Shown here piece after piece: positions 2,590 through 50,950 of a stretch of DNA of 64,000 nucleotides. The notes under the pieces are model-generated. The model did not search any database. It saw nothing but the letters and a program-made list of their open reading frames with translations, and had not been told where the DNA came from. The DNA is from Apostichopus japonicus (taxonomy: Eukaryota; Echinodermata; Holothuroidea; Aspidochirotida; Stichopodidae). The translations under genes and the position numbers were made by a program. The stretch spans positions 3,917,001-3,981,000 of the forward strand of contig NC_092568.1 of the NCBI RefSeq assembly GCF_037975245.1, read 5' to 3'. How positions within the stretch are numbered: position 1 is the stretch's first letter; every line of letters starts with the position of its first letter.

Positions 2590-2661
2590 AAATGACTATT
2601 CTTGTTACTAAGCAGGGATTAGAAGTGCGTCATCTCCTAAATAAATTCAAAACTCTCTTCT

Positions 2662-2888
2662 CTTTTGAAAGTTCACTTTATTCTTCCAAATCAAAATGTA
2701 CATGTAAAGCAAGTGCATTCTGTGCATTCATTGGTATTTATTAATCTTAATATAATTCATTTATTTTAATGACAATTTAATTTTACAAGATTGTAAATAA
2801 AATATACTAATAACAAAAATGAATCGTATTAAAAAACTGGAAGGTAAAAAAAAAGGAAATACACATTTATCGCCATTTCAAAAAAAAT
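2662..2888 (-). mobile_element. 5'-truncated LINE tail inside the lone satellite monomer
   Basis: Read on the minus strand, the 3' end is TACATTTTGATTTGGAAGAA, then AATAAAGTGAACTTTC and an A-rich end. This closely resembles the 3' end of the full-length LINE at 21104-26223 (TACATTTTGATTTTGGTTGA, AATAAAGTGAAACTTT). Similarity is clear for roughly the last 60-80 bp and is lost further in, so this is an older or sister-family copy. A probable target duplication is CTCTCTTCT at 2653-2661 and CTCGCTTCT at 2889-2897 (8 of 9). Orientation relative to the satellite is the same as for the big LINE. Confidence 0.75.
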
Positions 2889-2943
2889 CTCGCTTCTACT
2901 CAAATTAAAGGGAAAATTTAAGTAAAAAGAAAGAAAATGTACT

Positions 2944-3007
2944 AGCAGAAACCCGGGATAGTTCAGAACTCGTTCTCCCAACGCTCTCCCAACTGAGCTA
3001 TTTCGGC
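2944..3007 (-). pseudogene. tRNA-Phe-like pseudogene of the lone monomer
   Basis: The minus strand retains a G1-type 5' end, the A-box region and the acceptor 3' side. An internal deletion has removed the anticodon arm and the 5' half of the T-arm, leaving 64 nt instead of about 108 in the array units. The 3' acceptor also has substitutions. It cannot form a tRNA fold or a B-box. Confidence 0.8.
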
Positions 3008-3359
3008 AGATAGGAAAAGATAGTAAAGATGCCATTAAATAATAAACAATTATTTTGATGATGCATAAATTTAAATCTAAAGTGACTTCTCTTAAAAGGA
3101 TTGTCTGGTGGCCCAAAGAAGTTACCTTAAAAAATAGTAAATAATTTTCCAAACATGTTGTCAAAGTATGAGAACGCTAATGTTGCGTTTGACAGAGAAA
3201 CGATTTTTTAATCGTTATGGATAGACATTTCAAATATGATTTGAACAGTACAATACGTGACGTCAGCTCTGCCATAGCAGATTGCGTCATAACCCACCCT
3301 CCGCACAGTACCTATACGGTAATCACAACAAAAACAGCGTTTGTATACAGATAAATTTC

Positions 3360-18935: not shown

Positions 18936-19516
18936 AAATCGATTCCGCCAAGTTTCATCTTTCGGTTTAACGAATACTTTACAAGTTTCCTTTTACTGTT
19001 AATTTGATCCGTGAATTTTATTTCAGCGATTTCGAAGAACAGTTAATGAACTGTGGTTTGAGTGTGAGTGTACTGTGTGTAACGCTATACAAGTACACCA
19101 ACTGAGCATCGTAGTATATACGTTCGCGAGTATGTACGTTATATATATGAGGCAATCCAATGTGCTTACACGTGAGTTTATTTGCTGCGGAATTGGGAGT
19201 GCTAACTTCAAGTCGCCTGTTTTGCCTATCTGCAAGCACTACGTCAATCACCATATTGAAGCGTTCGAACAAACGGTACTTTTGGTGAGAAACTGGTGAA
19301 TTTGAAAACCAGATTTCTACAAGAAGAAAACGTCGAATGGGGACAATTTTTACATGGTTAGAAAGAGAAAAATAATAACTACAAGGACAATGTATCAAAA
19401 TCTTCCACCAGACAATTCCTTTAATACTTAGAAGTGATTAAAAGTGCGTCGTCATCTTCATGAATTCAAAACCATCAAAGTAGGCTCAATTTAAATTAAA
19501 AGAAAGAAAATGTACT

Positions 19517-19624
19517 TGCCGAAACCCGGGAAAGTTCAGAACTCGTTTGAGTTCTCCTTAAATGATTTGAAGCAGGGACCTTTAGATCTTCAGTCTAACG
19601 CTCTCCCAACTGAGCTATTTCGGC
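19517..19624 (-). tRNA. tRNA-Phe(GAA)-like, first array unit, T-loop insertion
   Basis: The minus strand gives the acceptor GCCGAAA paired with TTTCGGC, discriminator A, A-box TAGCTCAGTTGG, and anticodon loop CTGAAGA between stems TTAGA and TCTAA (anticodon GAA). The T-stem CCTGC/CCGGG carries a mismatch here. The T-loop is about 42 nt instead of 7. The B-box reads GCTTCAAATC, off consensus, and the insert has TTAAGG where most units have CCGG. It is the outermost left unit and slightly diverged. Confidence 0.75.
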
Positions 19625-19703
19625 AGTTAGGAAGAGATAGATGCAATTAAATAATAAACAATTATTTTGATAATATATAAATTTAAGTCTGAAGTGAATT
19701 CTC

Positions 19704-20452
19704 CAAGGGCGGCGGAAGCACTTTTAATCTGGGGGGGCACCAACGTCGAAGGGCACTTTGCAGAAATTCGATTGGACTGATGCAGCCTGATATGTAGTAC
19801 CCTTTATAACTCTTATTGTATTATCTTATTTGCGTATACACATCACTCCATGAATGCCCCCCCGCCCCCGCCTCAAGTAAACAATGTATACTAGCACTGC
19901 AATATCTAATGTGCAAATTGGGAAATTGGAAAATCATTATAAAGTCCAAGTCCCTGCACACGCGTACGATACATGCATGAAAGCAAATGAAATATGTCAA
20001 AATACTGAAAGAAAAATAATTTTCTATGTGTTTTTCAATGGTTAAACTAATATTATTATGATCATTATTATTGTAACGACTTTGCCAATAATTCTAACCA
20101 ATTTGGAAGGGTTATAACACGGCAATGATTGTATGTTATTGGCATGCTATGTAATAACCAACGCATGCCTATATGATATGCACGTTAACATACATGTTGA
20201 ACGCGCGCGTAGCGCGCGAAAAATTTTGGTAATGTTTTTCGGGCAAGTCGTTACAGCCCCCCCCCCCCCCCTCCCCCCAAATCAAATTGGGCTCCTATAC
20301 GCCTGTGGTAGTAAACATTTAAAACTTCCGGGTTTCGCTTTGTAAACTCTTTATTTATTTAGAAATTTTTATGTAGAAAAAGGGCACATTTTTAACCTGA
20401 GGAAAAGTGGGGGGGCACGTGCCCCCTGTGCCCCCCGGTTCCGCCGCCCTTG
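19704..20452. mobile_element. non-autonomous hAT element in the array, 749 bp
   Basis: The terminal inverted repeats are CAAGGGCGGCGGAA and its complement TTCCGCCGCCCTTG. An exact 8-bp target duplication, GAATTCTC, lies at 19696-19703 and 20453-20460, inside the spacer of the first satellite unit. It is the same family as 53266-53922 but in the opposite orientation: both share GTGCCCCCTGTGCCCCCC next to one end, and the CTGGGGGGGCACC and GATTGGACTGATGCAGCCTG blocks near the other. No transposase; the internal open frame at 20133-20345 is unrecognised. Confidence 0.95.
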
Positions 20453-20556
20453 GAATTCTCTTAATACTTAGTAGTGATTAAAAGTGCGTCGTCTTCGTAA
20501 TAAATTCAAAACAATCAAAGTAGGCTCAATTAAAATTAAAAGAAAGAAAATGTACT

Positions 20557-20664
20557 TGCCGAAACCCGGGAAAGTTCAGAACTCGTTTGAGTTCTCCGGA
20601 AATGATTTGAAGCAGGGACCTTTAGATCTTCAGTCTAACGCTCTCCCAACTGAGCTATTTCGGC
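20557..20664 (-). tRNA. tRNA-Phe(GAA)-like unit with T-loop insertion
   Basis: Same architecture as the array consensus, 108 nt. The B-box is the GCTTCAAATC variant, which also breaks the last T-stem pair. A TTTT pol III stop lies about 7 nt downstream on the minus strand. It appears identical to the next unit (20840), which indicates very recent duplication or homogenisation. Confidence 0.8.
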
Positions 20665-20839
20665 AGTTAGGAAAAGATAGATGCAATTAAATAATAAACA
20701 ATTATTTTGATAATATATAAATTTAAGTCTGAAGTGAATTCTCTTAATACTTAGTAGTGATTAAAAGTGCGTCGTCTTCGTAATAAATTCAAAACAATCA
20801 AAGTAGGCTCAATTAAAATTAAAAGAAAGAAAATGTACT

Positions 20840-20947
20840 TGCCGAAACCCGGGAAAGTTCAGAACTCGTTTGAGTTCTCCGGAAATGATTTGAAGCAGGG
20901 ACCTTTAGATCTTCAGTCTAACGCTCTCCCAACTGAGCTATTTCGGC
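20840..20947 (-). tRNA. tRNA-Phe(GAA)-like unit with T-loop insertion
   Basis: Exactly 283 bp from the preceding unit and indistinguishable from it by eye. Anticodon GAA, A-box intact, B-box variant GCTTCAAATC. It is the last complete unit before the LINE. Confidence 0.8.
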
Positions 20948-21087
20948 AGTTAGGAAAAGATAGATGCAATTAAATAATAAACAATTATTTTGATAATATA
21001 TAAATTTAAGTCTGAAGTGAATTCTCTTAATACTTAGTAGTGATTAAAAGTGCGTCGTCTTCGTAATAAATTCAAAACAATCAAAGT

Positions 21088-21103
21088 AGGCTCAATTAAA
21101 ATT
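21088..21103. repeat. LINE target-site duplication, left copy
   Basis: AGGCTCAATTAAAATT next to the poly-T tract (the LINE poly-A on the minus strand). The matching copy is at 26224-26239. The last two T bases are ambiguous because they merge with the tail. Confidence 0.9.
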
Positions 21104-21279
21104 TTTTTTTTTTTAAAGTTTCACTTTATTCAACCAAAATCAAAATGTACAGATAAAACAAGTGCTCTTAGTGCACTTTTTGACAAGTACTAAACAGAAT
21201 TTAGTAAAATAATAATCCAAACAGTTAATGCAGAACAAAGGAAGTATATATTAAGACTTTAGAAATGAAAAACAAAACC

Positions 21280-24200
21280 TTAAGAGACATTTGTCTTGAG
21301 ATTAATATGAAGTTTGTCTTTTTTAATTTTAACAAAAGACGTTCCGGACGTCCAAAGTTTACTGAACTGATGTTTTGTAAGACGACTGAAGTCTGCTTCT
21401 ACTCGGGTTTTAATTTCCTTTGCAATAATCGAGAGAAGAGCAGTCCCAGTTTGGGCTTGGTCTTCAAAAATATGAAGGCACCTTGACTTCCAAATAGCAA
21501 ATTTCGTAATACAAAAGATAAACCAAATTCTGTTGAAAACTATCTGTGGAAAGTCGACACAAGGGAATCCAAACAAATACAGTTTCATGTTAAATGAGCT
21601 GTTATCACCAGCTAATCTGTGAAAAATTTTCTCTACCCAAATCAAAACTGTCTTGGCTTTTGGGCATTCCCAGAAAATGTGAGAAATGGTCTCAATTTCG
21701 TTACACTGCTCGCAAGGACAAATACCGTCACCCATTCCCCAGTCCTTTATCCTTTTACCGGTGTACAAAATGTGATGTGCTAGACGCCATTGAAAATCCA
21801 TTAATTTGTTGCCTAGCATGTTACTAAAGGCCAGCTTCCAGATGGTCTCCCAAGGGAAAGCTGGGTAATCTCTAACAGCAATTAAGTTGGCACCACTGGG
21901 TTGAAGGGATTTAGTAATAAGTTTGATACTCTTACTGGACTGAAAGAAAAGGCTGTCCATGGAATGTAACCTCCTAATGATATCACTTGCGTAAAGTAAC
22001 GAGGGTGGACAAACGGCAGAATTTGGCCGCGTATTGGACCATAACTGAGGGAAGACTCTACGTAGTGGCATGGCCAGAAAGAAACGAGCTATAATAAAAT
22101 GGATAGGCGGGTCTTGCATGCGAGTCAGCAAGGTAAATAAAGGTCTAATTAACAATGCATCCATCTTATTTCTAAAACTATCTAAACCTAAGCCGCCTTG
22201 TAGTCTGTCCAAGATGATGACTTTCCTAGACACAAGGTCGGGTTTGTTTTCACCCCAAATAAAGGAGAAAACGGCTTTGTTTACTTCCTTGACCACACTA
22301 TCAGGCACACGAAAAACGGGGGCCACAAAGTAAAACAGTGGATAAATAACAGTATTAGTAACCAGTACTTTGCCTAGGAGAGTCAAGTGTCTGCTGCTCC
22401 AAGATTTAGCAAGAAGAGTGGCAGATTTAACCTTTGTAGCCCAATTACAATGGACAGCCTCCTTTGAACCAAAAGTCACACCCGTGATTTTGATTGAAGA
22501 GGTACTCCAATGAATGTTGGTGGGTAACTGACGAGAGGCAAACGTACCCAACTTTAAGCCACAAGTCTTGCTCATGTTTACAGAAGCACCGGTAGCTTTT
22601 TGAAAAAGTTTAAACACATTAAAATACTGTGCGATATCACCAATATTGGTTGCAACACATGTGGCGTCATCCGCGTATTGAAGAAATTTAACACGTCTGC
22701 CACTCCCACCAGGGATGGGAAAGCCCCGGATGCTATTGCAACTGTTAATATATCTAGAAATTGGCTCAATAAATAACACATACAGAACCGGTGAAAGGGG
22801 GCAGCCCTGCCTCACCCCTCGAGCAATGGGTATGATATCAGAGAGATTTCCGTTGATAAGAATACGACTGTAAATATTGTTGTACAAAATAGTCACCCAT
22901 TTTCGAAAATTGCTACCAAACCGTAACTTCTCGAGAACTCTCATAAGAAATGACCAAGAAACTTTATCGAAAGCTTTGTGTTGGTCGATTGAGATGAGGG
23001 CACAATCAATTTTCTTCATGGCAGAATAATCAATTATATCTCTAATTATGAACATATTATCGTGAATAGATCTGCCAGGGACAGAACACGTTTGATGCTC
23101 GTTTACAATAGTGGGCAATACTTTAGACATTCTGATTTGTAGAACCTTCGAGATCAGTTTATAGTCTGTGTTAAGCAGACTGATTGGACGCCAATTGGTT
23201 GGGTCAGTCTTATCACCTTTCTTTGGGAGAAGTGTAACGATGCCTGTACGCTGAGACATTGACATAGTGCCAGTTTTGAAAATGTTGTTATAAACACCGA
23301 GGAGGTCTTCGCCCAACATATCTAGGAAGGAGGAATAGAATTCATATGGAAGACCATCAATACCCGGAGATTTGTTATTGGAAGCAAGCGACAGAGCAAT
23401 CTTTATCTCATCTAGAGTGATAGGTTTTTCAAGACTTTCAATGTCCTCATCATTTAACATGTTGTGCAAACTATTAATGAAAACATCTTGAGAACTCTCG
23501 TCAAACCCTTCGTGGTTGGAATAGAGATCACTAAAGAATTTGTGGAAAACCTCTATAATTTCCTTATTATTGCAGGTAATATTACCGTCCGGTTTGCGGA
23601 CTTGATGAACAACTTTCTGATCGGCTTGACGTTTTTCTTTTCTAAAGAAAAAGGCAGATGGTTTTTCCCCTTCTTCAAGAAATTGAGCTCTGGAACGAAT
23701 GTAAGCACCTCTTAACTCAGTGTTAATAATATCATCGATTTCCTGAGAATTTGAAGTCGCACAAAGCGTTTGAAGCTCTTTAAGCCGATTTCTCTTCTGA
23801 CGAGCAATGCGGGAGCTGTGCCGAACCGCAAGCGTTTTAATTCTAGACTTAACGTTCTCCCACCAATCAGATAAAGCATTAAAACCTGGCTTCAGAGTGG
23901 ACCAAAGCTTATAATAAACACGTAATTCTTTGCAGAATTCCTTATCATTGTTAAGAGACACATTGTACTTCCAATAACCTTTCCCCCGAGTAGCAGTGTG
24001 AGGAATTTTGATGTTGACCTGAATAGGCTTATGGTCAGAATAAGGGATCGGCGACGTAGTCGCTTTGTTGACAAAAAAATCTCTCGAAGAGTAGATTCGA
24101 TCAAGTCTAGAACTTTGACTGTTGTTAAAACGAAACCAGGTATGACCGGGTATGGTGGGGTGGATAACCCTATAACAATCAACAAGATTATAAGTGACAA

Positions 24201-24722
24201 TAAGATCGTTGATCTCATCCCGGCCTACAAAAGCAGAACGGTTGGACGAAATGTTTGAGCGATCGATGTCATCCATTACACAATTAAAATCGCCCCCCAA
24301 AATAATATGGTCGTAACCACGGGTGTAAGTGTAAATTTGCCTGAAAAACGCTTTCCTTTCACTCGGGGCGTTAGGCGCATAAATGTTACAAACCCGTACA
24401 GTACTGTTATGAATAGTGCAGAGGGCAGAAATGCAACGACCAGAGGTATCGTGTCTTACTTGCGAAATGACGCAACACAGTTTACTACTGAAAGCAATAC
24501 CCACCCCACAAGAGTGATTAGAAGAACTAGGGGAGAAAATGAAAGGACCACCCCATTGACGTCTGAAAAATTGAGAGTCGGCACTATCCGACAAATACAG
24601 TTCTTGCAGAGAATAATATCAAAATTGAATATCTTAGCCCATTGTAAAATCTTTGAACATTTTTTGTTGTCTCTTAGTCCATTAACGTTAAGTGAAGCAA
24701 TCGATAGGTTCATAGTAGCCAT
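21280..24722 (-). CDS. LINE ORF2: APE endonuclease and reverse transcriptase, one frameshift
   Basis: Catalyses target nicking and target-primed reverse transcription of the element. The frame starts at ATG 24722 with SLNVNGLRD of the endonuclease, loses one base near 24609-24611, and continues to 21280 as a 1104-residue open frame (numbered from 24594). Endonuclease motifs: GGDFNCVMDD at about 100-109, RLDRIYSS at about 163-170, and SDHKP at 186-190. Reverse transcriptase motifs: NKSPGIDGLP at 407-416, LPKKGDKTDPTNWRPISLLN at 456-475, ISIDQHKAFDKV at 534-545, RGVRQGCPLSP at 592-602, and catalytic YADD at 640-643. A CCHC finger (C-x2-C-x7-H-x4-C) is at about 961-977, typical of L1/Tx1-like ORF2. 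Apart from the frameshift the ORF is about 1147 residues, normal for the group. It is probably inactive because of the frameshift, unless that is a sequencing error. Smaller open frames on either strand inside it are shadows. Confidence 0.93.
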
Positions 24723-24779
24723 AGAGAGAGATAAAGTAAAGAACAGAACGAGATGTATACCACAATGAGATTCCGATGA

Positions 24780-26177
24780 TCAGGCATTCCTTAAAAAATA
24801 CCTGTCGAAAAATTCTATCTCCTTTTTACTGACAAATTCTGGGTGCTCGTCAGCCATATGTAAGATCCATTCCTGGGGGGATTTACACGTATTCTTGCAT
24901 GACTTCATAGCACATGGGTACTTTGACGGTTTCAGCTTTGGGTGGGCGTTTAACAGGTGCTCTTTCAAAACGTGATACTCAGAAAAAACTTCCGGGCATC
25001 CCTTTGCTTTACATGAGTGCCATGGCTCATCCTCTAGAAAAATTTGTGACATTTTCACACTATCTTTGGGGTCCTCGGCGGGGAAGCGAAGACTTGACCT
25101 GGATCTTTCTGGTCTTTTGACTGCTTCAGGTTGGGAGACACTTTTTCTCTTGGGTCTTAAGCTGGGACGAAATTTATTATCCCCAACGATGTCCTCTTGT
25201 GACGATATTTCAGGTGAAGGTTTAGACTGTCTTCTTTCGCTGTTCGATACTTCCCGATGTTCTGTTTGAGGGGTGGCCCAGCTACTTGATGCTAAAGACA
25301 TTGTCTCCATAACCTCTGTGTTTTCGAACAAATCTGTGTCGCTATCGTTGATTGTTTGACTTTCTTCTTTTTTCTCTAGGTCCTGTGTCATACCTTGTGT
25401 ATCGACCGTTTCGGCATTGGTGTTGCCGTCAGTTACTTTTGCCGTTGGCTCGTCAGTTTCTTCCGACATTGTTGCCTCTTGTTGCACGACAGCAGGACCC
25501 TTGACCCAGGCTCTGGCGGTAGGGCTGATTTTGTTCGCAAAGGAAATTGGGCAGCTACGAGAGGTGTGCCCCAACTTTTCGCATACGGTGCACTTAACTT
25601 CAGTCACACATTGCTTTGCTGTATGTCCAATTTCGTGACAGTTGTAGCACTTTATCTGGTCACAGTGTTTTGCTTCATGTCCGTTTGCTCCACATTTCAG
25701 GCAAGTTCTGGGCTGGCCTCTATATCGCACCCAACAGTTTCTTCCACCAAGTCTTAAGGATGAAGGGATGTCTTTGGTGATTTCAACCTGATACTGCCGA
25801 ATCCCATTAAACACCTGTGGGTAGTCGGAAAGTGTAAGGAAACGACCACTCACAACTTTACCGTAACGGCCTAGAATATACCTCACCACGTTGTCCCCCA
25901 ATTCATACGGTACATGCAAAACGGTAACTAGCGTCGTGCAACCGGTATATGTTGTTGCAGTGCAGCAATCTGCACTCGATAGAGCAGGCCAAAACTTCTT
26001 CTTCAAATCTACTGTTTTGAAAGTCACGTCCCATAGTCTACCGGGGAGTTCCTGAACCGCCGTTAGATGTTCTCCGGGATCTATGCACTTTTCCTTCAAA
26101 AGATTAAAAAGAACTGACTTCCCCTCACTACAATCTAGGTGAAGCTGTATGGACGTGTCTCGACTAAGAGCAGCCAT
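24780..26177 (-). CDS. LINE ORF1: zinc-knuckle RNA-binding (gag-like) protein
   Basis: A 465-residue protein if started at ATG 26177 (the frame is open 13 codons further upstream but without an ATG). The N-terminal half (about 10-150) has an RRM-like feel and no motif that I can fix exactly. Three CCHC knuckles follow at about 159-172 (CLKCGANGHEAKHC), 177-190 (CYNCHEIGHTAKQC) and 196-209 (CTVCEKLGHTSRSC). A long acidic/Ser-rich linker (about 215-380) leads to two C-terminal C2H2-like fingers at about 389-412 and 422-445. It should bind the element RNA and form the retrotransposition particle. Extra C2H2 fingers are unusual next to plain L1 ORF1 and could take part in target recognition; that last point is inference. 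Intact from ATG to stop. Confidence 0.9.
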   Translation of the reverse strand: MAALSRDTSIQLHLDCSEGKSVLFNLLKEKCIDPGEHLTAVQELPGRLWDVTFKTVDLKKKFWPALSSADCCTATTYTGCTTLVTVLHVPYELGDNVVRYILGRYGKVVSGRFLTLSDYPQVFNGIRQYQVEITKDIPSSLRLGGRNCWVRYRGQPRTCLKCGANGHEAKHCDQIKCYNCHEIGHTAKQCVTEVKCTVCEKLGHTSRSCPISFANKISPTARAWVKGPAVVQQEATMSEETDEPTAKVTDGNTNAETVDTQGMTQDLEKKEESQTINDSDTDLFENTEVMETMSLASSSWATPQTEHREVSNSERRQSKPSPEISSQEDIVGDNKFRPSLRPKRKSVSQPEAVKRPERSRSSLRFPAEDPKDSVKMSQIFLEDEPWHSCKAKGCPEVFSEYHVLKEHLLNAHPKLKPSKYPCAMKSCKNTCKSPQEWILHMADEHPEFVSKKEIEFFDRYFLRNA

Positions 26178-26223
26178 ATTGATTCCTATGTTCGTTCTTG
26201 TTCTATTAAAGCTCAACTATATA

Positions 26224-26239
26224 AGGCTCAATTAAAATT
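26224..26239. repeat. LINE target-site duplication, right copy
   Basis: AGGCTCAATTAAAATT, identical to 21088-21103. It lies 20 bp downstream (minus strand) of the 3' end of the tRNA-like unit at 26259-26365. Confidence 0.9.
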
Positions 26240-26258
26240 AAAAGAAAGAAAATGTACT

Positions 26259-26365
26259 TGCCGAAACCCGGGAAAGTTCAGAACTCGTTTGAGTTCTCCG
26301 ATATGATTTGAACCAGGGACCTTTAGATCTTCAGTCTAACGCTCTCCCAACTGAGCTATTTCGGC
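26259..26365 (-). tRNA. tRNA-Phe(GAA)-like unit next to the LINE 5' end
   Basis: First unit right of the LINE, 107 nt because one G is missing from the CCGG of the insert. A-box TAGCTCAGTTGG and B-box GGTTCAAATC are both intact, and the anticodon is GAA. TTTT at 26249-26252 (complement) lies 7 nt past the discriminator, as expected for a pol III stop. The LINE sits just beyond this stop, so the insertion need not disrupt the tRNA-like transcript. Confidence 0.82.
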
Positions 26366-27115
26366 AGATAGGAAAAGATAGATGCAATTAAATAATAAAC
26401 AATTATTTTGATGATGTATAAATTTAAGTCTGAAGTGACTTCTCTTCATACCAAGAAGGGATTAAAAGTGCGTCCTCTTTACTAATAAATTCAAAACAAT
26501 CAAGTACAGCTCAATTTAAGTCAAAAAGAAGAAGAAAGAAAATGTACTTGCCGAAACCCGGGAAAGTTCAGAACTCGTTTGAGTTCTCCGGAAGTGATTT
26601 GAAGCAGGGACCTTTAGATCTTCAGTCTAACGCTCTCCCAACTGAGCTATTTCGGCAGTTAGGAAAAGATAGATGCAATTAAATAATAAACAATTATTTT
26701 GATAATATATAAATTTAAGTCTGAAGTGAATTCTCTTAATACTTAGTAGTGATTAAAAGTGCGTCGTCTTCTTAATAAATTCAAAACAATCAAAGTAGGC
26801 TCAATTAAAAAGAAGAAGAAAGAAAATGTACTTGCCGAAACCCGGGAAAGTTCAGAACTCGCTTGAGTTCTCCGGAAGTGATTTGAAGCAGGGACCTTTA
26901 GATCTTCAGTCTAACGCTCTCCCAACTGAGCTATTTCGGCAGTTAGGAAAAGATAGATGCAATTAAATAATAAACAATTATTTTGATAATATATAAATTT
27001 AAGTCTGAAGTGAATTCTCTTAATACTTAGTAGTGATTAAAAGTGCGTCGTCTTCGTAATAAATTCAAAACAATCAAAGTAGGCTCAATTAAAATTAAAA
27101 GAAAGAAAATGTACT

Positions 27116-27223
27116 TGCCGAAACCCGGGAAAGTTCAGAACTCGTTTGAGTTCTCCGGATATGATTTGAACCAGGGACCTTTAGATCTTCAGTCTAACGC
27201 TCTCCCAACTGAGCTATTTCGGC
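27116..27223 (-). tRNA. tRNA-Phe(GAA)-like unit, representative consensus copy
   Basis: A 108-nt cloverleaf-like gene on the minus strand. Acceptor GCCGAAA/TTTCGGC with discriminator A73; D-arm with AGCTCAGTTGGGAGAGC; anticodon arm TTAGA-CTGAAGA-TCTAA (GAA, Phe); T-stem CCTGG/CCGGG. From the 5' end to TTC of the T-loop it agrees with the conserved eukaryotic tRNA-Phe. The T-loop is then extended to about 42 nt. The insert contains AGAACTC-AAAC-GAGTTCT, a perfect 7-bp hairpin with a 4-nt loop, flanked by GTTC and GAAC which could add a further 4-bp stem. The A-box, a B-box (GGTTCAAATC) and a TTTT terminator suggest that it could be transcribed by pol III. Whether the RNA is processed into a functional tRNA is unknown. 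Confidence 0.85.
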
Positions 27224-29010
27224 AGATAGGAAAAGATAGATGCAATTAAATAATAAACAATTATTTTGATGATGTATAAATTTAAGTCTGAAGTGACTTC
27301 TCTTCATACCAAGAAGGGATTAAAAGTGCGTCCTCTTTACTAATAAATTCAAAACAATCAAGTACAGCTCAATTTAAGTCAAAAAGAAGAAGAAAGAAAA
27401 TGTACTTGCCGAAACCCGGGAAAGTTCAGAACTCGTTTGAGTTCTCCGGAAGTGATTTGAAGCAGGGACCTTTAGATCTTCAGTCTAACGCTCTCCCAAC
27501 TGAGCTATTTCGGCAGTTAGGAAAAGATAGATGCAATTAAATAATAAACAATTATTTTGATAATATATAAATTTAAGTCTGAAGTGAATTCTCTTAATAC
27601 TTAGTAGTGATTAAAAGTGCGTCGTCTTCTTAATAAATTCAAAACAATCAAAGTAGGCTCAATTAAAAAGAAGAAGAAAGAAAATGTACTTGCCGAAACC
27701 CGGGAAAGTTCAGAACTCGCTTGAGTTCTCCGGAAGTGATTTGAAGCAGGGACCTTTAGATCTTCAGTCTAACGCTCTCCCAACTGAGCTATTTCGGCAG
27801 TTAGGAAAAGATAGATGCAATTAAATAATAAACAATTATTTTGATAATATATAAATTTAAGTCTGAAGTGAATTCTCTTAATACTTAGTAGTGATTAAAA
27901 GTGCGTCGTCTTCGTAATAAATTCAAAACAATCAAAGTAGGCTCAATTAAAATTAAAAGAAAGAAAATGTACTTGCCGAAACCCGGGAAAGTTCAGAACT
28001 CGTTTGAGTTCTCCGGATATGATTTGAACCAGGGACCTTTAGATCTTCAGTCTAACGCTCTCCCAACTGAGCTATTTCGGCAGATAGGAAAAGATAGATG
28101 CAATTAAATAATAAACAATTATTTTGATGATGTATAAATTTAAGTCTGAAGTGACTTCTCTTCATACCAAGAAGGGATTAAAAGTGCGTCCTCTTTACTA
28201 ATAAATTCAAAACAATCAAGTACAGCTCAATTTAAGTCAAAAAGAAGAAGAAAGAAAATGTACTTGCCGAAACCCGGGAAAGTTCAGAACTCGTTTGAGT
28301 TCTCCGGAAGTGATTTGAAGCAGGGACCTTTAGATCTTCAGTCTAACGCTCTCCCAACTGAGCTATTTCGGCAGTTAGGAAAAGATAGATGCAATTAAAT
28401 AATAAACAATTATTTTGATAATATATAAATTTAAGTCTGAAGTGAATTCTCTTAATACTTAGTAGTGATTAAAAGTGCGTCGTCTTCTTAATAAATTCAA
28501 AACAATCAAAGTAGGCTCAATTAAAAAGAAGAAGAAAGAAAATGTACTTGCCGAAACCCGGGAAAGTTCAGAACTCGCTTGAGTTCTCCGGAAGTGACTT
28601 GAAGCAGGGACCTTTAGATCTTCAGTCTAACGCTCTCCCAACTGAGCTATTTCGGCAGTTAGGAAAAGATAGATGCAATTAAATAATAAACAATTATTTT
28701 GATAATATATAAATTTAAGTCTGAAGTGAATTCTCTTAATACTTAGTAGTGATTAAAAGTGCGTCGTCTTCGTAATAAATTCAAAACAATCAAAGTAGGC
28801 TCAATTAAAATTAAAAGAAAGAAAATGTACTTGCCGAAACCCGGGAAAGTTCAGAACTCGTTTGAGTTCTCCGGAAATGATTTGAACCAGGGACCTTTAG
28901 ATCTTCAGTCTAACGCTCTCCCAAACTGAGCTATTTCGGCAGATAGGAAAAGATAGATGCCATTAAATAATAAGCAATTATCTTTATAATGTATAAATTT
29001 AAGTCTGAAG

Positions 29011-41000: not shown

Positions 41001-41328
41001 GCAATTATTTTGATGATATATAAATTTAAGTCTGAAGTGACTTCTCTTCATACCAAGAAGGGATTAAAAGTGCGTCATCTTTACTAATAAATTAAAAACA
41101 ATCAAGTACAGCTCAATTTAAGTCAAAAAGAAGGAGAAAGAAAATGTACTTGCCGAAACCCGGGAAAGTTCAGAACTCGTTTGAGTTCTCCGGAAGTGAT
41201 TTGAAGCAGGGACCTTTAGATCTTCAGTCTAACGCTCTCCCAACTGAGCTATTTCGGCAGCTAGGAAAGGATAGATGCAATTAAATAATAAGCAATCATC
41301 TTTATAATGTATAAATTTAAGTCTGAAG
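29011..41328 (-). repeat. large higher-order repeat, two copies of ~6.0 and 6.3 kb
   Basis: The rare spacer variant TGACCTCTCTTAAAAGTAGT occurs at 29011, 35023 and 41329, i.e. at intervals of 6012 and 6306 bp (21 and 22 units). Unit-specific variants recur at the same offsets: CTCCTTAAATGATTTG at about 31440 and 37454, TTCAGTTCTCC at about 33146 and 39452, CCGAAACCTGGG at about 33409 and 39715, and GTGCCTCGTC at 33616 and 39922. The second copy carries one extra unit. This is a segmental duplication of a 21-mer within the array. Confidence 0.9.
34263..34370 (-). tRNA. tRNA-Phe(GAA)-like unit, off-consensus B-box example
   Basis: Same 108-nt layout as 27116-27223, but with GCTTCAAATC in place of GGTTCAAATC. 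The change removes the conserved G of the pol III B-box and opens the last T-stem pair. The same change recurs in many units at matching positions of the higher-order repeats, so it is inherited by block duplication. Confidence 0.78.
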
Positions 41329-44300
41329 TGACCTCTCTTAAAAGTAGTAATTAAAAGTGCGTCGTCTTCGTAATAAATTCAAAACAATCAAAGTAGGCTC
41401 AGTTTAAATTAAAAGAAAGAAAATGTACTTGCCGAAACCCGGGAAAGTTCAGAACTCGTTTGAGTTCTCCGGAAGTGATTTGAACCAGGGACCTTTAGAT
41501 CTTCAGTCTAACGCTCTCCCAACTGAGCTATTTCGGCAGTTAGGAAAAGATAGATGCCATTAAATAATAAGCAATTAGTTAAATGATGTATAAATTTAAG
41601 TCTGAAGTGACTTCTCTTCATACCAAGAAAGGATTAAAAGTGCGTCCTCTTTACTAATAAATTCAAAACAATCAAGTACAGCTCAATTTAAGTCAAAAAG
41701 AAGAAGAAAGAAAATGTACTTGCCGAAACCCGGGAAAGTTCAGAACTCGTTTGAGTTCTCCGGAAGTGATTTGAAGCAGGGACCTTTAGATCTTCAGTCT
41801 AACGCTCTCCCAACTGAGCTATTTCGGCAGTTAGGAAAAGAAAGATGCAATTAAATAATAAGCAATTGTTTTGATGATGTATAAATTTAAGTCTGAAGTG
41901 ACTTCTCTTCATACCAAGAAGGGATTAAAAGTGCGTCGTCTTCTTAATAAATTCAAAACAATCAAGTACAGCTCAATTAAAATTAAAAGAAAGAAAATGT
42001 ACTTGCCGAAACCCGGGAAAGTTCAGAACTCGTTTGAGTTCTCCGGATATGATTTGAACCAGGGACCTTTAGATCTTCAGTCTAACGCTCTCCCAACTGA
42101 GCTATTTCGGCAGATAGGAAAAGATAGATGCCATTAAATAATAAGCAATTATTTTGATGATGTATAAATTTAAGTCTGAAGTGACTTCTCTTCACACCAA
42201 GAATTGATTAAAGTGCGTCCTCTTTACTAATAAATTCAAAACAATCAAGTACAGCTCAATTTAAGTCAAAAAGAAGAAGAAAGAAAATGTACTTGCCGAA
42301 ACCCGGGAAAGTTCAGAACTCGTTTGAGTTCTCCGGATATGATTTGAACCAGGGACCTTTAGAATTCAGTCTAACGCTCTCCCAACTGAGCTATTTCGGC
42401 AGATAGGAAAAGATAGATGCCATTAAATAATAAGCAATTATTTTAATGGTGTATAAATTTAAGTCTGAAGTGACTTCTCTTCATACCAAGAAGGGATTAA
42501 AAGTGCGTCGTCTTCTTAATAAATTCAAAACAATCAAGTACAGCTCAATTAAAATTAAAAGAAAGAAAATGTACTTGCCGAAACCCGGGAAAGTTCAGAA
42601 CTCGTTTGAGTTCTCCGGATATGATTTGAACCAGGGACCTTTAGATCTTCAGTCTAACGCTCTCCCAACTGAGCTATTTCGGCAGATAGGAAAAGATAGA
42701 TGCCATTAAATAATAAACAATTATTTTGATGATATATAAATTTAAGTCTGAAGTGACTTCTCTTCATACCAAGAAGGGATTAAAAGTGCGTCGTCCTCTT
42801 TACTAATAAATTCAAAACAATCAAGTAAAGCTCAATTTAAGTCAAAAAGAAGAAGAAAGAAAATGTACTTGCCGAAACCCGGGAAAGTTCAGAACTCGTT
42901 TGAGTTCTCCGGAAGTGATTTGAACCAGGGACCTTTAGATCTTCAGTCTAACGCTCTCCCAACTGAGCTATTTCGGCAGTTCGGAAAAGATAGATGCAAT
43001 TAAATAATAAGCAATTATTTTGATAATGTATAAATTTAAGTCTGAAGTGACTTCTCTTAATACTTAGTAGTGATTAAAAATGCGTCTTCTTAATGAATTC
43101 AAAACCATCAAAGTAGGCTCAATTAAAATTAAAAGAAAGAAAATGTACTTGCCGAAACCCGGGAAAGTTCAGAACTCGTTTGAGTTCTCCGGATATGATT
43201 TGAACCAGGGACCTTTAGATCTTCAGTCTAACGCTCTCCCAACTGAGCTATTTCGGCAGTTAGGAAAAGATAGATGCAATTAAATAATAAGCAATTATTT
43301 TGATGATGTATAAATTTAAGTCTGAAGTGACTTCTCTTCATACCAAGAAAGGATTAAAAGTGCGTCCTCTTTACTAATAAATTCAAAACAATCAAGTACA
43401 GCTCAATTTAAGTCAAAAAGAAGAAGAAAGAAAATGTACTTGCCGAAACCCGGGAAAGTTCAGAACTCGTTTGAGTTCTCCGGATATGATTTGAGCCAGG
43501 GACCTTTAGATCTTCAGTCTAACGCTCTCCCAACTGAGCTATTTCGGCAGATAGGAAAAGATAGATGCCATTAAATAATAAGCAATTATTTTGATGATGT
43601 ATAAATTTAAGTCTGAAGTGACTTCTCTTCATACCAAGAAGGGATTAAAAGTGCGTCATCTTTACTAATAAATTCAAAACAATCAAGTACAGCTCAATTT
43701 AAGTCAAAAAGAAGGAGAAAGAAAATGTACTTGCCGAAACCCGGGAAAGTTCAGAACTCGTTTGAGTTCTCCGGAAGGGATTTGAACCAGGGACCTTTAG
43801 ATCTTCAGTCTAACGCTCTCCCAACTGAGCTATTTCGGCAGCTAGGAAAGGATAGATGCAATTAACTAATAAGCAATCATCTTTATAATGTATAAATTTA
43901 AGTCTGAAGTGACCTCTCTTAAAAGTAGTAATTAAAAGTGCGTCGTCTTCGTAATAAATTCAAAACAATCAAAGTAGGCTCAGTTTAAATTAAAAGAAAG
44001 AAAATGTACTTGCCGAAACCCGGGAAAGTTCAGAACTCGTTTGAGTTCTCCGGAAGTGATTTGAACCAGGGACCTTGAGATCTTCAGTCTAACGCTCTCC
44101 CAACTGAGCTATTTCGGCAGTTAGGAAAAGATAGATGCCATTAAATAATAAGCAATTAGTTAAATGATGTATAAATTTAAGTCTGAAGTGACTTCTCTTC
44201 ATACCAAGAAAGGATTAAAAGTGCGTCCTCTTTACTAATAAATTCAAAACAATCAAGTACAGCTCAATTTAAGTCAAAAAGAAGAAGAAAGAAAATGTAC

Positions 44301-47300
44301 TTGCCGAAACCCGGGAAAGTTCAGAACTCGTTTGAGTTCTCCGGAAGTGATTTGAACCAGGGACCTTTAGATCTTCAGTCTAACGCTCTCCCAACTGAGC
44401 TATTTCGGCAGCTAGGAAAGGATAGATGCAATTAAATAATAAGCAATTATTTTGATAAAGTATAAATTTAAGTCTGAAGTGACTTCTCTTAATACTTAGT
44501 AGTGATTAAGTGCGTCGTCTTCTTAATAAATTCAAAACCATCAAAGTAGGCTCAATTAAAATTAAAAGAAAGAAAATGTACTTGCCGAAACCCGGGAAAG
44601 TTCAGAACTCGTTTGAGTTCTCCGGATATGATTTGAACCAGGGACCTTTAGATCTTCAGTCTAACGCTCTCCCAACTGAGCTATTTCGGCAGATAGGAAA
44701 AGATAGATGCCATTAAATAATAAGCAATTATTTTGATGATGTATAAATTTAAGTCTGAAGTGACTTCTCTTCACACCAAGAATTGATTAAAGTGCGGCCT
44801 TTTTTTCTAATAAATTCAAAACAATCAAGTACAGCTCAATTTAAGTCAAAAAGAAGAAGAAAGAAAATGTACTTGCCGAAACCCGGGAAAGTTCAGAACT
44901 CGTTTGAGTTCTCCGGATATGATTTGAACCAGGGACCTTTAGATCTTCAGTCTAACGCTCTCCCAACTGAGCTATTTCGGCAGTTCGGAAAAGATAGATG
45001 CAATTAAATAATAAACAATTATTTTGATGATGTATAAATTTAAGTCTGAAGTGACTTCTCTTCATACCAAGAAGGGATTAAAAGTGCGTCCTCTTTACTA
45101 ATAAATTCAAAACAATCAAGTACAGCTCAATTTAAGTCAAAAAGAAGAAGAAAGAAAATGTACTTGCCGAAACCCGGGAAAGTTCAGAACTCGTTTGAGT
45201 TCTCCGGAAGTGATTTGAAGCAGGGACCTTTAGTTCTTCAGTCTAACGCTCTCCCAACTGAGCTATTTCGGCAGTTAGGAAAAGATAGATGCAATTAAAT
45301 AATAAACAATTATTTTGATAATATATAAATTTAAGTCTGAAGTGAATTCTCTTAATACTTAGTAGTGATTAAAAGTGCCTCGTCTTCTTAATAAATTCAA
45401 AACAATCAAAGTAGGCTCAATTAAAATTAAAAGAAAGAAAATGTACTTGCCGAAACCCGGGAATGTTCAGAACTCGTTTGAGTTCTCCGGAAGTGATTTG
45501 AACCAGGGACCTTTAGATCTTCAGTCTAACGCTCTCCCAACTGAGCTATTTCGGCAGTTAGGAAAAGAAAGATGCAATTAAATAATAAGCAATTATTTTG
45601 ATGATGTATAAATTTAAGTCTGAAGTGACTTCTCTTCATACCAAGAAGGGATTAAAAGTGCGTCCTCTTTACTAATAAATTCAAAACAATCAAGTACATC
45701 TCAATTTAAGTCAAAAAGAAGAAGAAAGAAAATGTACTTGCCGAAACCCGGGAAAGTTCAGAACTCGTTTGAGTTCTCCGGATATGATTTGAGCCAGGGA
45801 CCTTTAGATCTTCAGTCTAACGCTCTCCCAACTGAGCTATTTCGGCAGATAGGAAAAGATAGATGCCATTAAATAATAAGCAATTATTTTGATGATGTAT
45901 AAATTTAAGTCTGAAGTGACTTCTCTTCATACCAAGAAGGGATTAAAAGTGCGTCATCTTTACTAATAAATTCAAAACAATCAAGTACAGCTCAATTTAA
46001 GTCAAAAAGAAGGAGAAAGAAAATGTACTTGCCGAAACCCGGGAAAGTTCAGAACTCGTTTGAGTTCTCCGGAAGTGATTTGAACCAGGGACCTTTAGAT
46101 CTTCAGTCTAACGCTCTCCCAACTGAGCTATTTCGGCAGCTAGGAAAGGATAGATGCAATTAAATAATAAGCAATCATCTTTATAATGTATAAATTTAAG
46201 TCTGAAGTGACCTCTCTTAAAAGTAGTAATTAAAAGTGCGTCGTCTTCGTAATAAATTCAAAACAATCAAAGTAGGCTCAGTTTAAATTAAAAGAAAGAA
46301 AATGTACTTGCCGAAACCCGGGAAAGTTCAGAACTCGTTTGAGTTCTCCGGATATGATTTGAACCAGGGACCTTTAGATCTTCAGTCTAACGCTCTCCCA
46401 ACTGAGCTATTTCGGCAGTTAGGAAAAGATAGATGCCATTAAATAATAAGCAATTAGTTAAATGATGTATAAATTTAAGTCTGAAGTGACTTCTCTTCAT
46501 ACCAAGAAAGGATTAAAAGTGCGTCCTCTTTACTAATAAATTCAAAACAATCAAGTACAGCTCAATTTAAGTCAAAAAGAAGAAGAAAGAAAATGTACTT
46601 GCCGAAACCCGGGAAAGTTCAGAACTCGTTTGAGTTCTCCGGAAGTGATTTGAAGCAGGGACCTTTAGATCTTCAGTCTAACGCTCTCCCAACTGAGCTA
46701 TTTCGGCAGCTAGGAAAGGATAGATGCAATTAAATAATAAGCAATTATTTTGATAAAGTATAAATTTAAGTCTGAAGTGACTTCTCTTAATACTTAGTAG
46801 TGATTAAAAGTGCGTCGTCTTCTTAATAAATTCAAAACAATCAAAGTAGGCTCAATTAAAATAAAGAAAATGTACTTGCCGAAACCCGGGAAAGTTCAGA
46901 ACTCGTTTGAGTTCTCCGGATATGATTTGAACCAGGGACCTTTAGATCTTCAGTCTAACGCTCTCCCAACTGAGCTATTTCGGCAGATAGGAAAAGATAG
47001 ATGCCATTAAATAATAAGCAATTATTTTGATGATGTATAAATTTAAGTCTGAAGTGACTTCTCTTCACACCAAGAATTGATTAAAGTGCGGCCTTTTTTT
47101 CTAATAAATTCAAAACAATCAAGTACAGCTCAATTTAAGTCAAAAAGAAGAAGAAAGAAAATGTACTTGCCGAAACCCGGGAAAGTTCAGAACTCGTTTG
47201 AGTTCTCCGGATATGATTTGAACCAGGGACCTTTAGATCTTCAGTCTAACGCTCTCCCAACTGAGCTATTTCGGCAGTTCGGAAAAGATAGATGCAATTA

Positions 47301-50300
47301 AATAATAAACAATTATTTTGATGATGTATAAATTTAAGTCTGAAGTGACTTCTCTTCATACCAAGAAGGGATTAAAAGTGCGTCCTCTTTACTAATAAAT
47401 TCAAAACAATCAAGTACAGCTCAATTTAAGTCAAAAAGAAGAAGAAAGAAAATGTACTTGCCGAAACCCGGGAAAGTTCAGAACTCGTTTGAGTTCTCCG
47501 GAAGTGATTTGAAGCAGGGACCTTTAGTTCTTCAGTCTAACGCTCTCCCAACTGAGCTATTTCGGCAGTTAGGAAAAGATAGATGCAATTAAATAATAAA
47601 CAATTATTTTGATAATATATAAATTTAAGTCTGAAGTGAATTCTCTTAATACTTAGTAGTGATTAAAAGTGCCTCGTCTTCTTAATAAATTCAAAACAAT
47701 CAAAGTAGGCTCAATTAAAATTAAAAGAAAGAAAATGTACTTGCCGAAACCCGGGAATGTTCAGAACTCGTTTGAGTTCTCCGGAAGTGATTTGAACCAG
47801 GGACCTTTAGATCTTCAGTCTAACGCTCTCCCAACTGAGCTATTTCGGCAGTTAGGAAAAGAAAGATGCAATTAAATAATAAGCAATTATTTTGATGATG
47901 TATAAATTTAAGTCTGAAGTGACTTCTCTTCATACCAAGAAGGGATTAAAAGTGCGTCCTCTTTACTAATAAATTCAAAACAATCAAGTACATCTCAATT
48001 TAAGTCAAAAAGAAGAAGAAAGAAAATGTACTTGCCGAAACCCGGGAAAGTTCAGAACTCGTTTGAGTTCTCCGGATATGATTTGAGCCAGGGACCTTTA
48101 GATCTTCAGTCTAACGCTCTCCCAACTGAGCTATTTCGGCAGATAGGAAAAGATAGATGCCATTAAATAATAAGCAATTATTTTGATGATGTATAAATTT
48201 AAGTCTGAAGTGACTTCTCTTCATACCAAGAAGGGATTAAAAGTGCGTCATCTTTACTAATAAATTCAAAACAATCAAGTACAGCTCAATTTAAGTCAAA
48301 AAGAAGGAGAAAGAAAATGTACTTGCCGAAACCCGGGAAAGTTCAGAACTCGTTTGAGTTCTCCGGAAGTGATTTGAACCAGGGACCTTTAGATCTTCAG
48401 TCTAACGCTCTCCCAACTGAGCTATTTCGGCAGCTAGGAAAGGATAGATGCAATTAAATAATAAGCAATCATCTTTATAATGTATAAATTTAAGTCTGAA
48501 GTGACCTCTCTTAAAAGTAGTAATTAAAAGTGCGTCGTCTTCGTAATAAATTCAAAACAATCAAAGTAGGCTCAGTTTAAATTAAAAGAAAGAAAATGTA
48601 CTTGCCGAAACCCGGGAAAGTTCAGAACTCGTTTGAGTTCTCCGGATATGATTTGAACCAGGGACCTTTAGATCTTCAGTCTAACGCTCTCCCAACTGAG
48701 CTATTTCGGCAGTTAGGAAAAGATAGATGCCATTAAATAATAAGCAATTAGTTAAATGATGTATAAATTTAAGTCTGAAGTGACTTCTCTTCATACCAAG
48801 AAAGGATTAAAAGTGCGTCCTCTTTACTAATAAATTCAAAACAATCAAGTACAGCTCAATTTAAGTCAAAAAGAAGAAGAAAGAAAATGTACTTGCCGAA
48901 ACCCGGGAAAGTTCAGAACTCGTTTGAGTTCTCCGGAAGTGATTTGAAGCAGGGACCTTTAGATCTTCAGTCTAACGCTCTCCCAACTGAGCTATTTCGG
49001 CAGCTAGGAAAGGATAGATGCAATTAAATAATAAGCAATTATTTTGATAAAGTATAAATTTAAGTCTGAAGTGACTTCTCTTAATACTTAGTAGTGATTA
49101 AAAGTGCGTCGTCTTCTTAATAAATTCAAAACAATCAAAGTAGGCTCAATTAAAATAAAGAAAATGTACTTGCCGAAACCCGGGAAAGTTCAGAACTCGT
49201 TTCAGTTCTCCGGATATGATTTGAACCAGGGACCTTTAGATCTTCAGTCTAACGCTCTCCCAACTGAGCTATTTCGGCAGATAGGAAAAGATAGATGCCA
49301 TTAAATAATAAGCAATTATTTTGATGATGTATAAATTTAAGTCTGAAGTGACTTCTCTTCACACCAAGAATTGATTAAAGTGCGTCCTCTTTACTAATAA
49401 ATTCAAAACAATCAAGTACAGCTCAATTTAAGTCAAAAAGAAGAAGAAAGAAAATGTACTTGCCGAAACCCGGGAAAGTTCAGAACTCGTTTGAGTTCTC
49501 CGGATATGATTTGAACCAGGGACCTTTAGAATTCAGTATAACGCTCTCCCAACTGAGCTATTTCGGCAGATAGGAAAAGATAGATGCCATTAAATAATAA
49601 GCAATTATTTTAATGGTGTATAAATTTAAGTCTGAAGTGACTTCTCTTCATACCAAGAAGGGATTAAAAGTGCGTCCTCTTTTTTTCAAATAAATTCAAA
49701 ACAATCAAGTACAGCTCAATTTAAGTCAAAAAGAAGAAGAAAGAAAATGTACTTGCCGAAACCCGGGAAAGTTCAGAACTCGTTTGAGTTCTCCGGATAT
49801 GATTTGAACCAGGGACCTTTAGATCTTCAGTCTAACGCTCTCCCAACTGAGCTATTTCGGCAGATAGGAAAAGATAGATGCCATTAAATAATAAACAATT
49901 ATTTTGATGATATATAAATTTAAGTCTGAAGTGACTTCTCTTCATACCAAGAAGGGATTAAAAGTGCGTCCTCTTTACTAATAAATTCAAAACAATCAAG
50001 TACAGCTCAATTTAAGTCAAAAAGAAGGAGAAAGAAAATGTACTTGCCGAAACCCGGGAAAGTTCAGAACTCGTTTGAGTTCTCCGGAAGTGATTTGAAC
50101 CAGGGACCTTTAGATCTTCAGTCTAACGCTCTCCCAACTGAGCTATTTCGGCAGTTCGGAAAAGATAGATGCAATTAAATAATAAGCAACTATTTTGATA
50201 ATGTATAAATTTAAGTCTGAAGTGACTTCTCTTAATACTTAGTAGTGATTAAAAATGCGTCGTCTTCTTAATGAATTCAAAACCATCAAAGTAGGCTCAA

Positions 50301-50760
50301 TTAAAATTAAAAGAAAGAAAATGTACTTGCCGAAACCCGGGAAAGTTCAGAACTCGTTTCAGTTCTCCGGATATGATTTGAACCAGGGACCTTTAGATCT
50401 TCAGTCTAACGCTCTCCCAACTGAGCTATTTCGGCAGATAGGAAAAGATAGATGCCATTAAATAATAAGCAATTATTTTGATGATGTATAAATTTAAGTC
50501 TGAAGTGACTTCTCTTCATACCAAGAAGGGATTAAAAGTGCGTCCTCTTTACTAATAAATTCAAAACAATCAAGTACAGCTCAATTTAAGTCAAAAAGAA
50601 GAAGAAAGAAAATGTACTTGCCGAAACCCGGGAAAGTTCAGAACTCGTTTAAGGCTCCGGAAGTGATTTGAACCAGGGACCTTTAGATCTTCAGTCTAAC
50701 GCTCTCCCAACTGAGCTATTTCGGCAGCTATAGGCAATGATAGATGCCAATTAAAATATA
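41329..50760 (-). repeat. 2.29-2.58 kb higher-order repeats at the right of the array
   Basis: The same TGACCTCTCTTAAAAGTAGT marker recurs at 41329, 43910, 46208 and 48502, spaced 2581, 2298 and 2294 bp (9, 8 and 8 units). The 43910 and 46208 blocks share an unusual GTGCGGCCTTTTTTTCTAAT spacer (44794, 47088) and GTGCCTCGTC (45375, 47669). The last block switches: 49.4-50.2 kb shares TTAGAATTCAG, TTTTAATGGTGT and GCAGTTCGG with 42.2-43.0 kb (offset 7167 bp for the first). This points to a chimeric block made by unequal exchange or conversion. Confidence 0.88.
50619..50725 (-). tRNA. tRNA-Phe(GAA)-like unit, last intact unit of the array
   Basis: The last unit with a full acceptor, A-box and B-box (GGTTCAAATC). 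The insert hairpin is damaged: GTTTAAGGCTCC replaces GTTTGAGTTCTCC, and the unit is 107 nt. Beyond it the repeat decays quickly (50760-50950 keeps only scattered matches such as ACATTTAGATCTTCAATC and CGCTCTCC), as expected at the edge of an array kept uniform by unequal exchange. Confidence 0.75.
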
Positions 50761-50950
50761 TGCAACTATTTTGACCTTTGAATTATTTTGACATTTAGAT
50801 CTTCAATCATATCGCTCTCCCTGCAACAAAGCTATTTTGGCTGCACAGAAAAGATGATGCAAAATGCATTGCATAACATAATATTATTCTGAAAGCGTTT
50901 TAATTTAAATCTGAAATGATTGTCTTAATACTAAGCAGGAATCAGCTAGA

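What the first reader, a model, noticed from the sequence alone, without database searches (positions are those of the whole stretch)
19415..50950. Satellite built from tRNA-Phe(GAA) genes that carry an insertion in the T-loop
Every unit I read has a complete tRNA-Phe framework on the minus strand: acceptor GCCGAAA/TTTCGGC, A73, A-box, anticodon GAA and T-stem. The T-loop is 42 nt rather than 7 in every one. Canonical nuclear tRNA introns in eukaryotes lie at position 37/38; T-arm introns are known mainly from archaea. About 89 copies at ~286 bp would be a very large tRNA-derived array. It is either an undescribed tRNA gene form with a non-canonical intron, a tandem tRNA-derived SINE source, or a satellite that captured a tRNA.
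Basis: partly seen in the sequence, partly recalled or inferred. Interest (0 to 1): 0.92.

Follow-up and report, generated by a model that had tools for sequence, protein, structure and literature searches.

The report
Sea cucumber tRNA genes interrupted mid-loop
A sea cucumber genome carries about 90 tandem copies, plus two separate single genes, of a phenylalanine tRNA gene interrupted by a small hairpin at a place where animal tRNA genes are not expected to be interrupted, which hints at an unknown step in making this tRNA.

Summary
The array is real: 89 units (19.4-50.7 kb) carry a minus-strand tRNA-Phe(GAA) with a 42-nt T-loop (41 in 2), interrupted by one hAT-like element and one LINE. 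The host is the sea cucumber Apostichopus japonicus. Two further loci, on C3 and C17, are single tRNA-Phe genes with the same T-loop insert, largely unrelated flanks and their own T-run; 8 weaker insert matches were not examined. Across the three loci the tRNA exons differ by at most one compensatory base pair, while the insert differs by 12-28% but keeps its hairpin. The insert begins right after A58; removing it leaves the same 73-nt tRNA-Phe, apart from that pair. Inside the array the exons are also conserved relative to the spacer. SINE and dispersed-satellite readings are not supported. Best reading: functional tRNA-Phe genes with a T-loop intron, known from archaea and a red alga; my searches found no report in an animal. 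Expression and splicing are untested, no strict BHB was found, half the array copies carry exon changes, and masking of the held genome prevents a census of uninterrupted tRNA-Phe genes.

The parts
19415..19703 (-). First unit of the array (tRNA-Phe body near 19518-19624), cut by the hAT-like element
19704..20452 (.). Non-autonomous hAT-like DNA element inserted in the array: inverted ends CAAGGGCGGCGGAA, 8-bp duplication GAATTCTC at 19696-19703 and 20453-20460
   Evidence: read from the sequence; part-copies at 53266-53922; the hAT label is my reading from end sequence and duplication length
20453..21103 (-). Two and a part array units (tRNA bodies at 20556 and 20839)
21104..26223 (-). LINE inserted in the array: ORF1 with a CCHC zinc knuckle (24780-26216), ORF2 with endonuclease, reverse transcriptase and zf-RVT (21280-24618); 16-bp duplication AGGCTCAATTAAAATT at 21088-21103 and 26224-26239
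26240..50735 (-). Main run of 86 interrupted tRNA-Phe units, mostly of two length types (283 and 291 bp)
27166..27223 (-). Representative unit: tRNA-Phe exon 1 (58 nt; A box, anticodon GAA, T-stem 5' strand, TTCAA)
27131..27165 (-). Representative unit: 35-nt T-loop insert with hairpin AGAACTC/GAGTTCT
27116..27130 (-). Representative unit: tRNA-Phe exon 2 (TCCCGGGTTTCGGC and A73)
27106..27109 (-). Representative unit: TTTT, Pol III-type terminator, 6 nt beyond A73; at this offset in 89 of 89 units
50780..50950 (-). Decayed extra unit at the end of the array (about 72% identity over 50790-50942)
2560..3095 (-). Decayed outlying unit, apparently split by a piece resembling the 3' end of the LINE; its tRNA body at 2944 is internally deleted (64 nt)

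Best explanation
These are functional, or recently functional, nuclear tRNA-Phe(GAA) genes of Apostichopus japonicus that carry a 32-35-nt non-canonical intron in the T-loop, directly after position 58. One copy was amplified into a single-locus tandem tRNA gene array; two single genes sit on other contigs. Inferred working: Pol III transcribes each unit from the internal A box and a B box that lies upstream of the insert, and stops at the T-run after A73. The insert, folded as a conserved hairpin, is cut out between A58 and U59 and the exons are joined, giving a 73-nt tRNA-Phe with T-loop UUCAAUC. Shown: the anatomy, the three loci, exon conservation, hairpin conservation and the T-runs. Inferred: transcription, excision, the exact splice sites and the enzyme.
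For: Three contexts hold the same interrupted gene: the array, C3:844706-844811 and C17:28179014-28179118. Pairwise exon differences (array-C3, array-C17, C3-C17) are 2, 2 and 0 of 73, the 2 being one compensatory U-A/C-G pair in the anticodon stem; insert substitutions are 4/33, 9/32 and 5/32 plus gaps (Fisher p = 0.07, 0.0003 and 0.002). In the 4 aligned sequences unbroken conservation stops right after TTCAA. Although the insert is 35, 33 or 32 nt long, its removal gives the same 73-mer apart from that pair; ARAGORN calls all three tRNA-Phe after removal, whereas unspliced C3 and C17 are not called. The hairpin has one pair changed on both sides and one changed to G-U. In the 86 units that have a following unit, the consensus of the two length types (42 and 44 units) differs at 0/72 exon, 2/35 insert and 24/184 spacer positions; columns with at least 5 minor alleles are 3/72, 2/35 and 46/184 (Fisher against spacer p = 7e-5 and 0.013); diversity is 0.014, 0.040 and 0.104. 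TTTT follows at the same offset in 89/89 units, and a T-run follows within 10 nt of A73 at C3 and C17. T-arm or T-loop introns exist in archaea and in Cyanidioschyzon merolae (PMC6379350, PMC9602550; passages).
Against: No expression data. A strict 3-4-3 bulge-helix-bulge was found in 0 of 4 sequences (3 loci, two array variants). The eukaryotic endonuclease senses the D-loop/T-loop elbow (PMC6379350, PMC10539383; passages), which this insert should disturb. Free folding of the precursor does not give a cloverleaf, and T-stem pairs have probability 0.01-0.12 even with the other arms enforced; but free folding of the spliced array 73-mer is no cloverleaf either, so this is weak. 45 of 89 array copies depart from the exon consensus and 30 have the damaging G53C; a few also depart in the insert's TCCGGAG. 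Insert against spacer is not significant at minor-allele count 2 or more (7/35 against 64/184, p = 0.11). The array-C3 exon-insert contrast is only p = 0.07. The covariation test rests on 4 sequences: 18 of 500 shuffles reach the score, and 104 of 500 reach the number of pairs changed on both sides. Unalignable flanks could mean that duplication copied only the gene, so age is uncertain.
Confidence: 0.55

Rival explanations
1. The transcript keeps its insert and works as a stable tRNA-like RNA (about 105-108 nt), not as a decoding tRNA, or as a tRNA with an enlarged T-arm.
For: With the acceptor, D and anticodon arms enforced, the best fold of 4 of 4 sequences pairs the insert's CCGG with the 3' T-stem strand and keeps the hairpin (CCGG pairs at probability 0.54-0.89); TCCGGAG is the same in the 4 sequences aligned.
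Against: Every tRNA exon position outside one compensatory pair, anticodon loop included, is the same at the loci aligned, which a non-decoding RNA would not need; the exons are conserved more than the insert.
Confidence: 0.18
2. An inert tandem repeat: a disabled tRNA-Phe gene with an insertion was amplified by unequal exchange, and C3 and C17 are decaying copies.
For: 45 of 89 array copies depart from the exon consensus and 30 have G53C; decayed units lie near both edges; C17 has a decayed partial second copy about 80 bp downstream.
Against: 0/73 exon differences between C3 and C17 against 5/32 in the insert, a compensatory anticodon-stem pair, 0/72 exon against 24/184 spacer differences between array types, and TTTT in 89/89 units.
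Confidence: 0.22
3. Head of a tRNA-derived SINE or its source.
For: tRNA-derived sequence with a B-box-like stretch, repeated many times.
Against: Clear copies of the insert were found at three loci only (8 weak matches unexamined); the 3' acceptor strand is retained; no A tail or flanking duplication was seen by eye at C3 or C17; similarity between loci ends near the tRNA ends.
Confidence: 0.03

Closest known systems
T-arm introns of nuclear tRNA genes in the red alga Cyanidioschyzon merolae, e.g. tRNA-Ile(UAU) (PMC9602550, abstract and passages)
   Same: Eukaryotic nuclear tRNA gene with an interruption in the T-arm; that paper says little is known of how its D- and T-arm introns are processed.
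   Different: Alga, other isotype, with D-arm and anticodon introns too; relaxed BHB motifs are reported for the alga (PMC6379350, passages). Here an animal, one insert, no strict BHB, and a tandem array.
Archaeal non-canonical tRNA introns with BHB or relaxed BHB motifs, T-loop included (PMC6379350, PMC8450103; passages)
   Same: Short structured insert in the T-loop of an otherwise canonical tRNA.
   Different: No strict BHB here; an animal, whose endonuclease is thought to need the mature tRNA elbow.
Tandem tRNA gene arrays in animals, such as the Xenopus tDNA cluster (recalled, from no call)
   Same: Head-to-tail tRNA genes at one locus.
   Different: Those units carry uninterrupted tRNA genes, as far as I recall.
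tRNA-derived SINEs (recalled)
   Same: tRNA-derived repeat with Pol III boxes.
   Different: Not dispersed, complete acceptor stem, no retroposition marks seen.

Membership tests
tRNA-Phe(GAA) gene | Phe framework: acceptor, D and anticodon arms, anticodon GAA, A73 | tested here: met
   C72-A73 in 84 of 89 array units, and at C3 and C17
tRNA-Phe(GAA) gene | 7-nt T-loop in the gene | tested here: not met
   42 nt in 87 and 41 nt in 2 of 89; 40 nt at C3 and 39 nt at C17 (from the sequences); 7 nt only after removal of the insert
tRNA-Phe(GAA) gene | Pol III boxes and terminator | tested here: inconclusive
   TTTT in 89 of 89 and at C3 and C17; the motif GWTCRANNC (recalled) fits array copies with G53 and T54 and fits C17, but deviates at its last base in C3; no transcription data
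Non-canonical tRNA intron | Removal at one point restores a canonical tRNA | tested here: met
   3 of 3 loci called tRNA-Phe by ARAGORN after removal (the array form is also called, with a wrong 3' end, before it)
Non-canonical tRNA intron | Strict BHB (3-4-3) at the exon-intron borders | tested here: not met
   0 of 4 sequences
Non-canonical tRNA intron | Excision in the cell | not testable with these tools
   no RNA data held
tRNA-derived SINE | Dispersed retroposed copies with target-site duplications and a tail | tested here: not met
   clear copies at three loci only; no tail or duplication seen by eye at C3 and C17
Satellite DNA | Long homogenised tandem array | tested here: met
Satellite DNA | Spread over several loci or chromosomes | tested here: not met
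   all 40 scored spacer matches lie in this array; 52 of 92 candidates were not scored

The most novel reading that the evidence does not exclude
In sea cucumbers most or all cytosolic tRNA-Phe comes from genes with a T-loop intron, so a splicing activity that works outside the anticodon loop and without a strict BHB is essential for decoding every phenylalanine codon in this animal.
Probability: 0.25. Interest if true: 0.93.

Novelty: new variant of a known kind. Interest (0 to 1): 0.78.

Why it matters
Eukaryotic nuclear tRNA introns usually lie at position 37/38, and the animal splicing endonuclease is thought to recognise the intact tRNA elbow. A conserved T-loop intron in an animal would go against both expectations, could be missed by gene finders (ARAGORN calls neither the C3 nor the C17 gene as it stands and misplaces the 3' end of the array copies it finds), and would give a natural substrate for asking how else pre-tRNA can be cut.

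Tried and rejected
Target-specific LINE: a decayed unit at 2.5-3.1 kb seemed to hold the same LINE, but BLAST of the unit found nothing in 11 of 11 other fetched loci holding its 3' end with about 1.5 kb on each side; the 5' ends of long copies were not reached. Target specificity is rejected on that evidence.

'No uninterrupted tRNA-Phe exists in the genome': patterns for it found none, but the held genome has masked stretches over tRNA bodies of many array copies, for a reason not stated, so ordinary tRNA-Phe genes may be hidden too. The claim is dropped.

BHB splicing motif: strict form in 0 of 4 sequences; a UUCA/UGAA helix was considered and has probability 0.12 or less.

SINE: not supported. 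Insert pattern in other collections: 0 matches in viral contigs and 2 bacterial loci in genome contigs, taken as chance without study. The 8 weak genome matches (2 mismatches; 3 matches in its control) were not examined either.

Paper searches bearing on precedents or reports in animals; none listed a T-loop intron in an animal nuclear tRNA, judged by titles, starts of abstracts and the passages read. The library lacks most subscription papers. One search (an assembly size) found nothing.
Full report
WHAT IS THERE. Tandem Repeats Finder gives one array of 85.6 copies at 26242-50774 and a shorter piece at 20453-21103. A script finds 89 units that keep the 3' T-stem and acceptor sequence (86 in the main run, 3 before it), plus one decayed copy at 2944. 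Spacing is mostly 283 or 291 bp. All 89 carry, on the minus strand, a tRNA-Phe(GAA) framework with a T-loop of 42 nt (87 units) or 41 nt (2 units). Rfam's tRNA model matches 69 places in the window and ARAGORN 27, in both cases over only 70-73 bases, so that the true 3' end is missed. TTTT lies 6 nt beyond A73 in 89 of 89 units. Exons match the consensus throughout in 44 of 89; 30 of 89 have G53 changed to C and 6 have T54 changed to C. Units 3, 8, 21 or 22 positions apart are often identical or nearly so (6, 9, 6 and 8 pairs above 99.5%), which suggests recent multi-unit duplication. The array is broken by a 749-bp element with 14-bp inverted ends and an 8-bp duplication (hAT-like, my reading) and by a LINE with a 16-bp duplication.

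WHICH ORGANISM. The window is G000:C8:3917001-3981000 in an assembly of 671,581,487 bases and 35 contigs. Two ferritin exons from it match PDB 7vhr at 72 of 73 and 49 of 52 aligned residues, the mismatches lying at the exon edges. The search listing of papers holding '7VHR' names the sea cucumber Apostichopus japonicus (PMC8886333, PMC9785301; listing only). The published A. japonicus assembly has 671.6 Mb, 34 scaffolds and 23 chromosomes (PMC10344927, passages), close to but not identical with the held one.

TWO MORE LOCI. A pattern for the insert hairpin with up to 3 mismatches finds 88 copies in the array and one on C3. A pattern that leaves the variable bases open finds 88 in the array, C3 and C17 with no mismatch, and 8 others with 2 mismatches, against 3 in its control; those 8 were not examined. 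C3 and C17 are complete tRNA-Phe genes with the insert at the same point. Their flanks do not resemble each other or the array beyond short stretches at the gene's edges, the longest being about 31 bases upstream between the array unit and C3. Both have TTTT within 10 nt of A73. C17 also has a decayed 3' half of a second copy about 80 bp downstream.

WHAT EVOLUTION SAYS. Exon differences are array-C3 2/73, array-C17 2/73, C3-C17 0/73; the two differences are one compensatory base pair in the anticodon stem. Insert substitutions are 4/33, 9/32 and 5/32, with length 35, 33 and 32 nt. Fisher p is 0.07, 0.0003 and 0.002. The insert hairpin (7 pairs) is kept in all 4 aligned sequences, with one pair changed on both sides and one changed to G-U (18 of 500 shuffles reach the covariation score, 104 of 500 the number of double-changed pairs). 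TTCAA ends the unbroken conserved stretch before the insert. Cutting after it and before TCCCGGG gives T-loop TTCAATC and the same 73-mer in C3 and C17, with the array differing by the one pair; ARAGORN calls all three tRNA-Phe after removal and only the array form, with a wrong 3' end, before it. Inside the array, in the 86 units that have a following unit, the two length types (42 and 44 units) differ at 0/72 exon, 2/35 insert and 24/184 spacer positions. So the exons, and more weakly the insert, are conserved, while many array copies are altered. At the looser cut (2 minor alleles) the insert does not differ significantly from the spacer (p = 0.11).

HOW IT MOST LIKELY WORKS. I favour transcription by Pol III (inferred from box and terminator sequence) and removal of the insert as a T-loop intron (inferred). 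The enzyme is open. No strict bulge-helix-bulge was found. The best fold with the other arms enforced pairs the insert's CCGG with the 3' T-stem strand. The genome has two exon-level matches to the tRNA splicing endonuclease domain among five candidates. Papers describe the eukaryotic endonuclease as sensing the D-loop/T-loop elbow (PMC6379350, PMC10539383; passages), so this intron either is cut by another route or uses a precursor fold that mimics the elbow (speculation).

LIMITS. There are no RNA data here. The held genome is masked over many array tRNA bodies, so uninterrupted tRNA-Phe genes, if they exist, could be hidden; the empty results are therefore not evidence of absence, and the masking also explains, I think, why searches list only 39 and 40 array copies. 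No other echinoderm could be searched. tRNAscan-SE was not run.

NOVELTY. T-arm or T-loop introns are known in archaea and in the alga Cyanidioschyzon merolae. I found no report in an animal in the searches named under Tried and rejected. I file it as a new variant of a known kind.

Noticed in passing
window 21104-26223: A LINE with ORF1 (CCHC) and ORF2 (endonuclease, reverse transcriptase, zf-RVT) in long open frames sits in the array; its 301-bp 3' end has nine full-length matches at 96-100% (this one included) and one at 85% in the genome, so it looks recent.
   Followed up: partly
window 19704-20452 and 53266-53922: Non-autonomous hAT-like element with 8-bp duplication; a second, reverse-oriented part-copy lies at about 53.3-53.9 kb.
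   Followed up: partly
window 55320-55436: Short interstitial array rich in GGGTTAGG, telomere-like.
   Followed up: no
L042, about 80 bp downstream of the C17 tRNA-Phe gene: A decayed 3' half of a second interrupted tRNA-Phe, with its own T-run.
   Followed up: partly
window 7526-7769: Long degenerate TTA-rich simple repeat.
   Followed up: no
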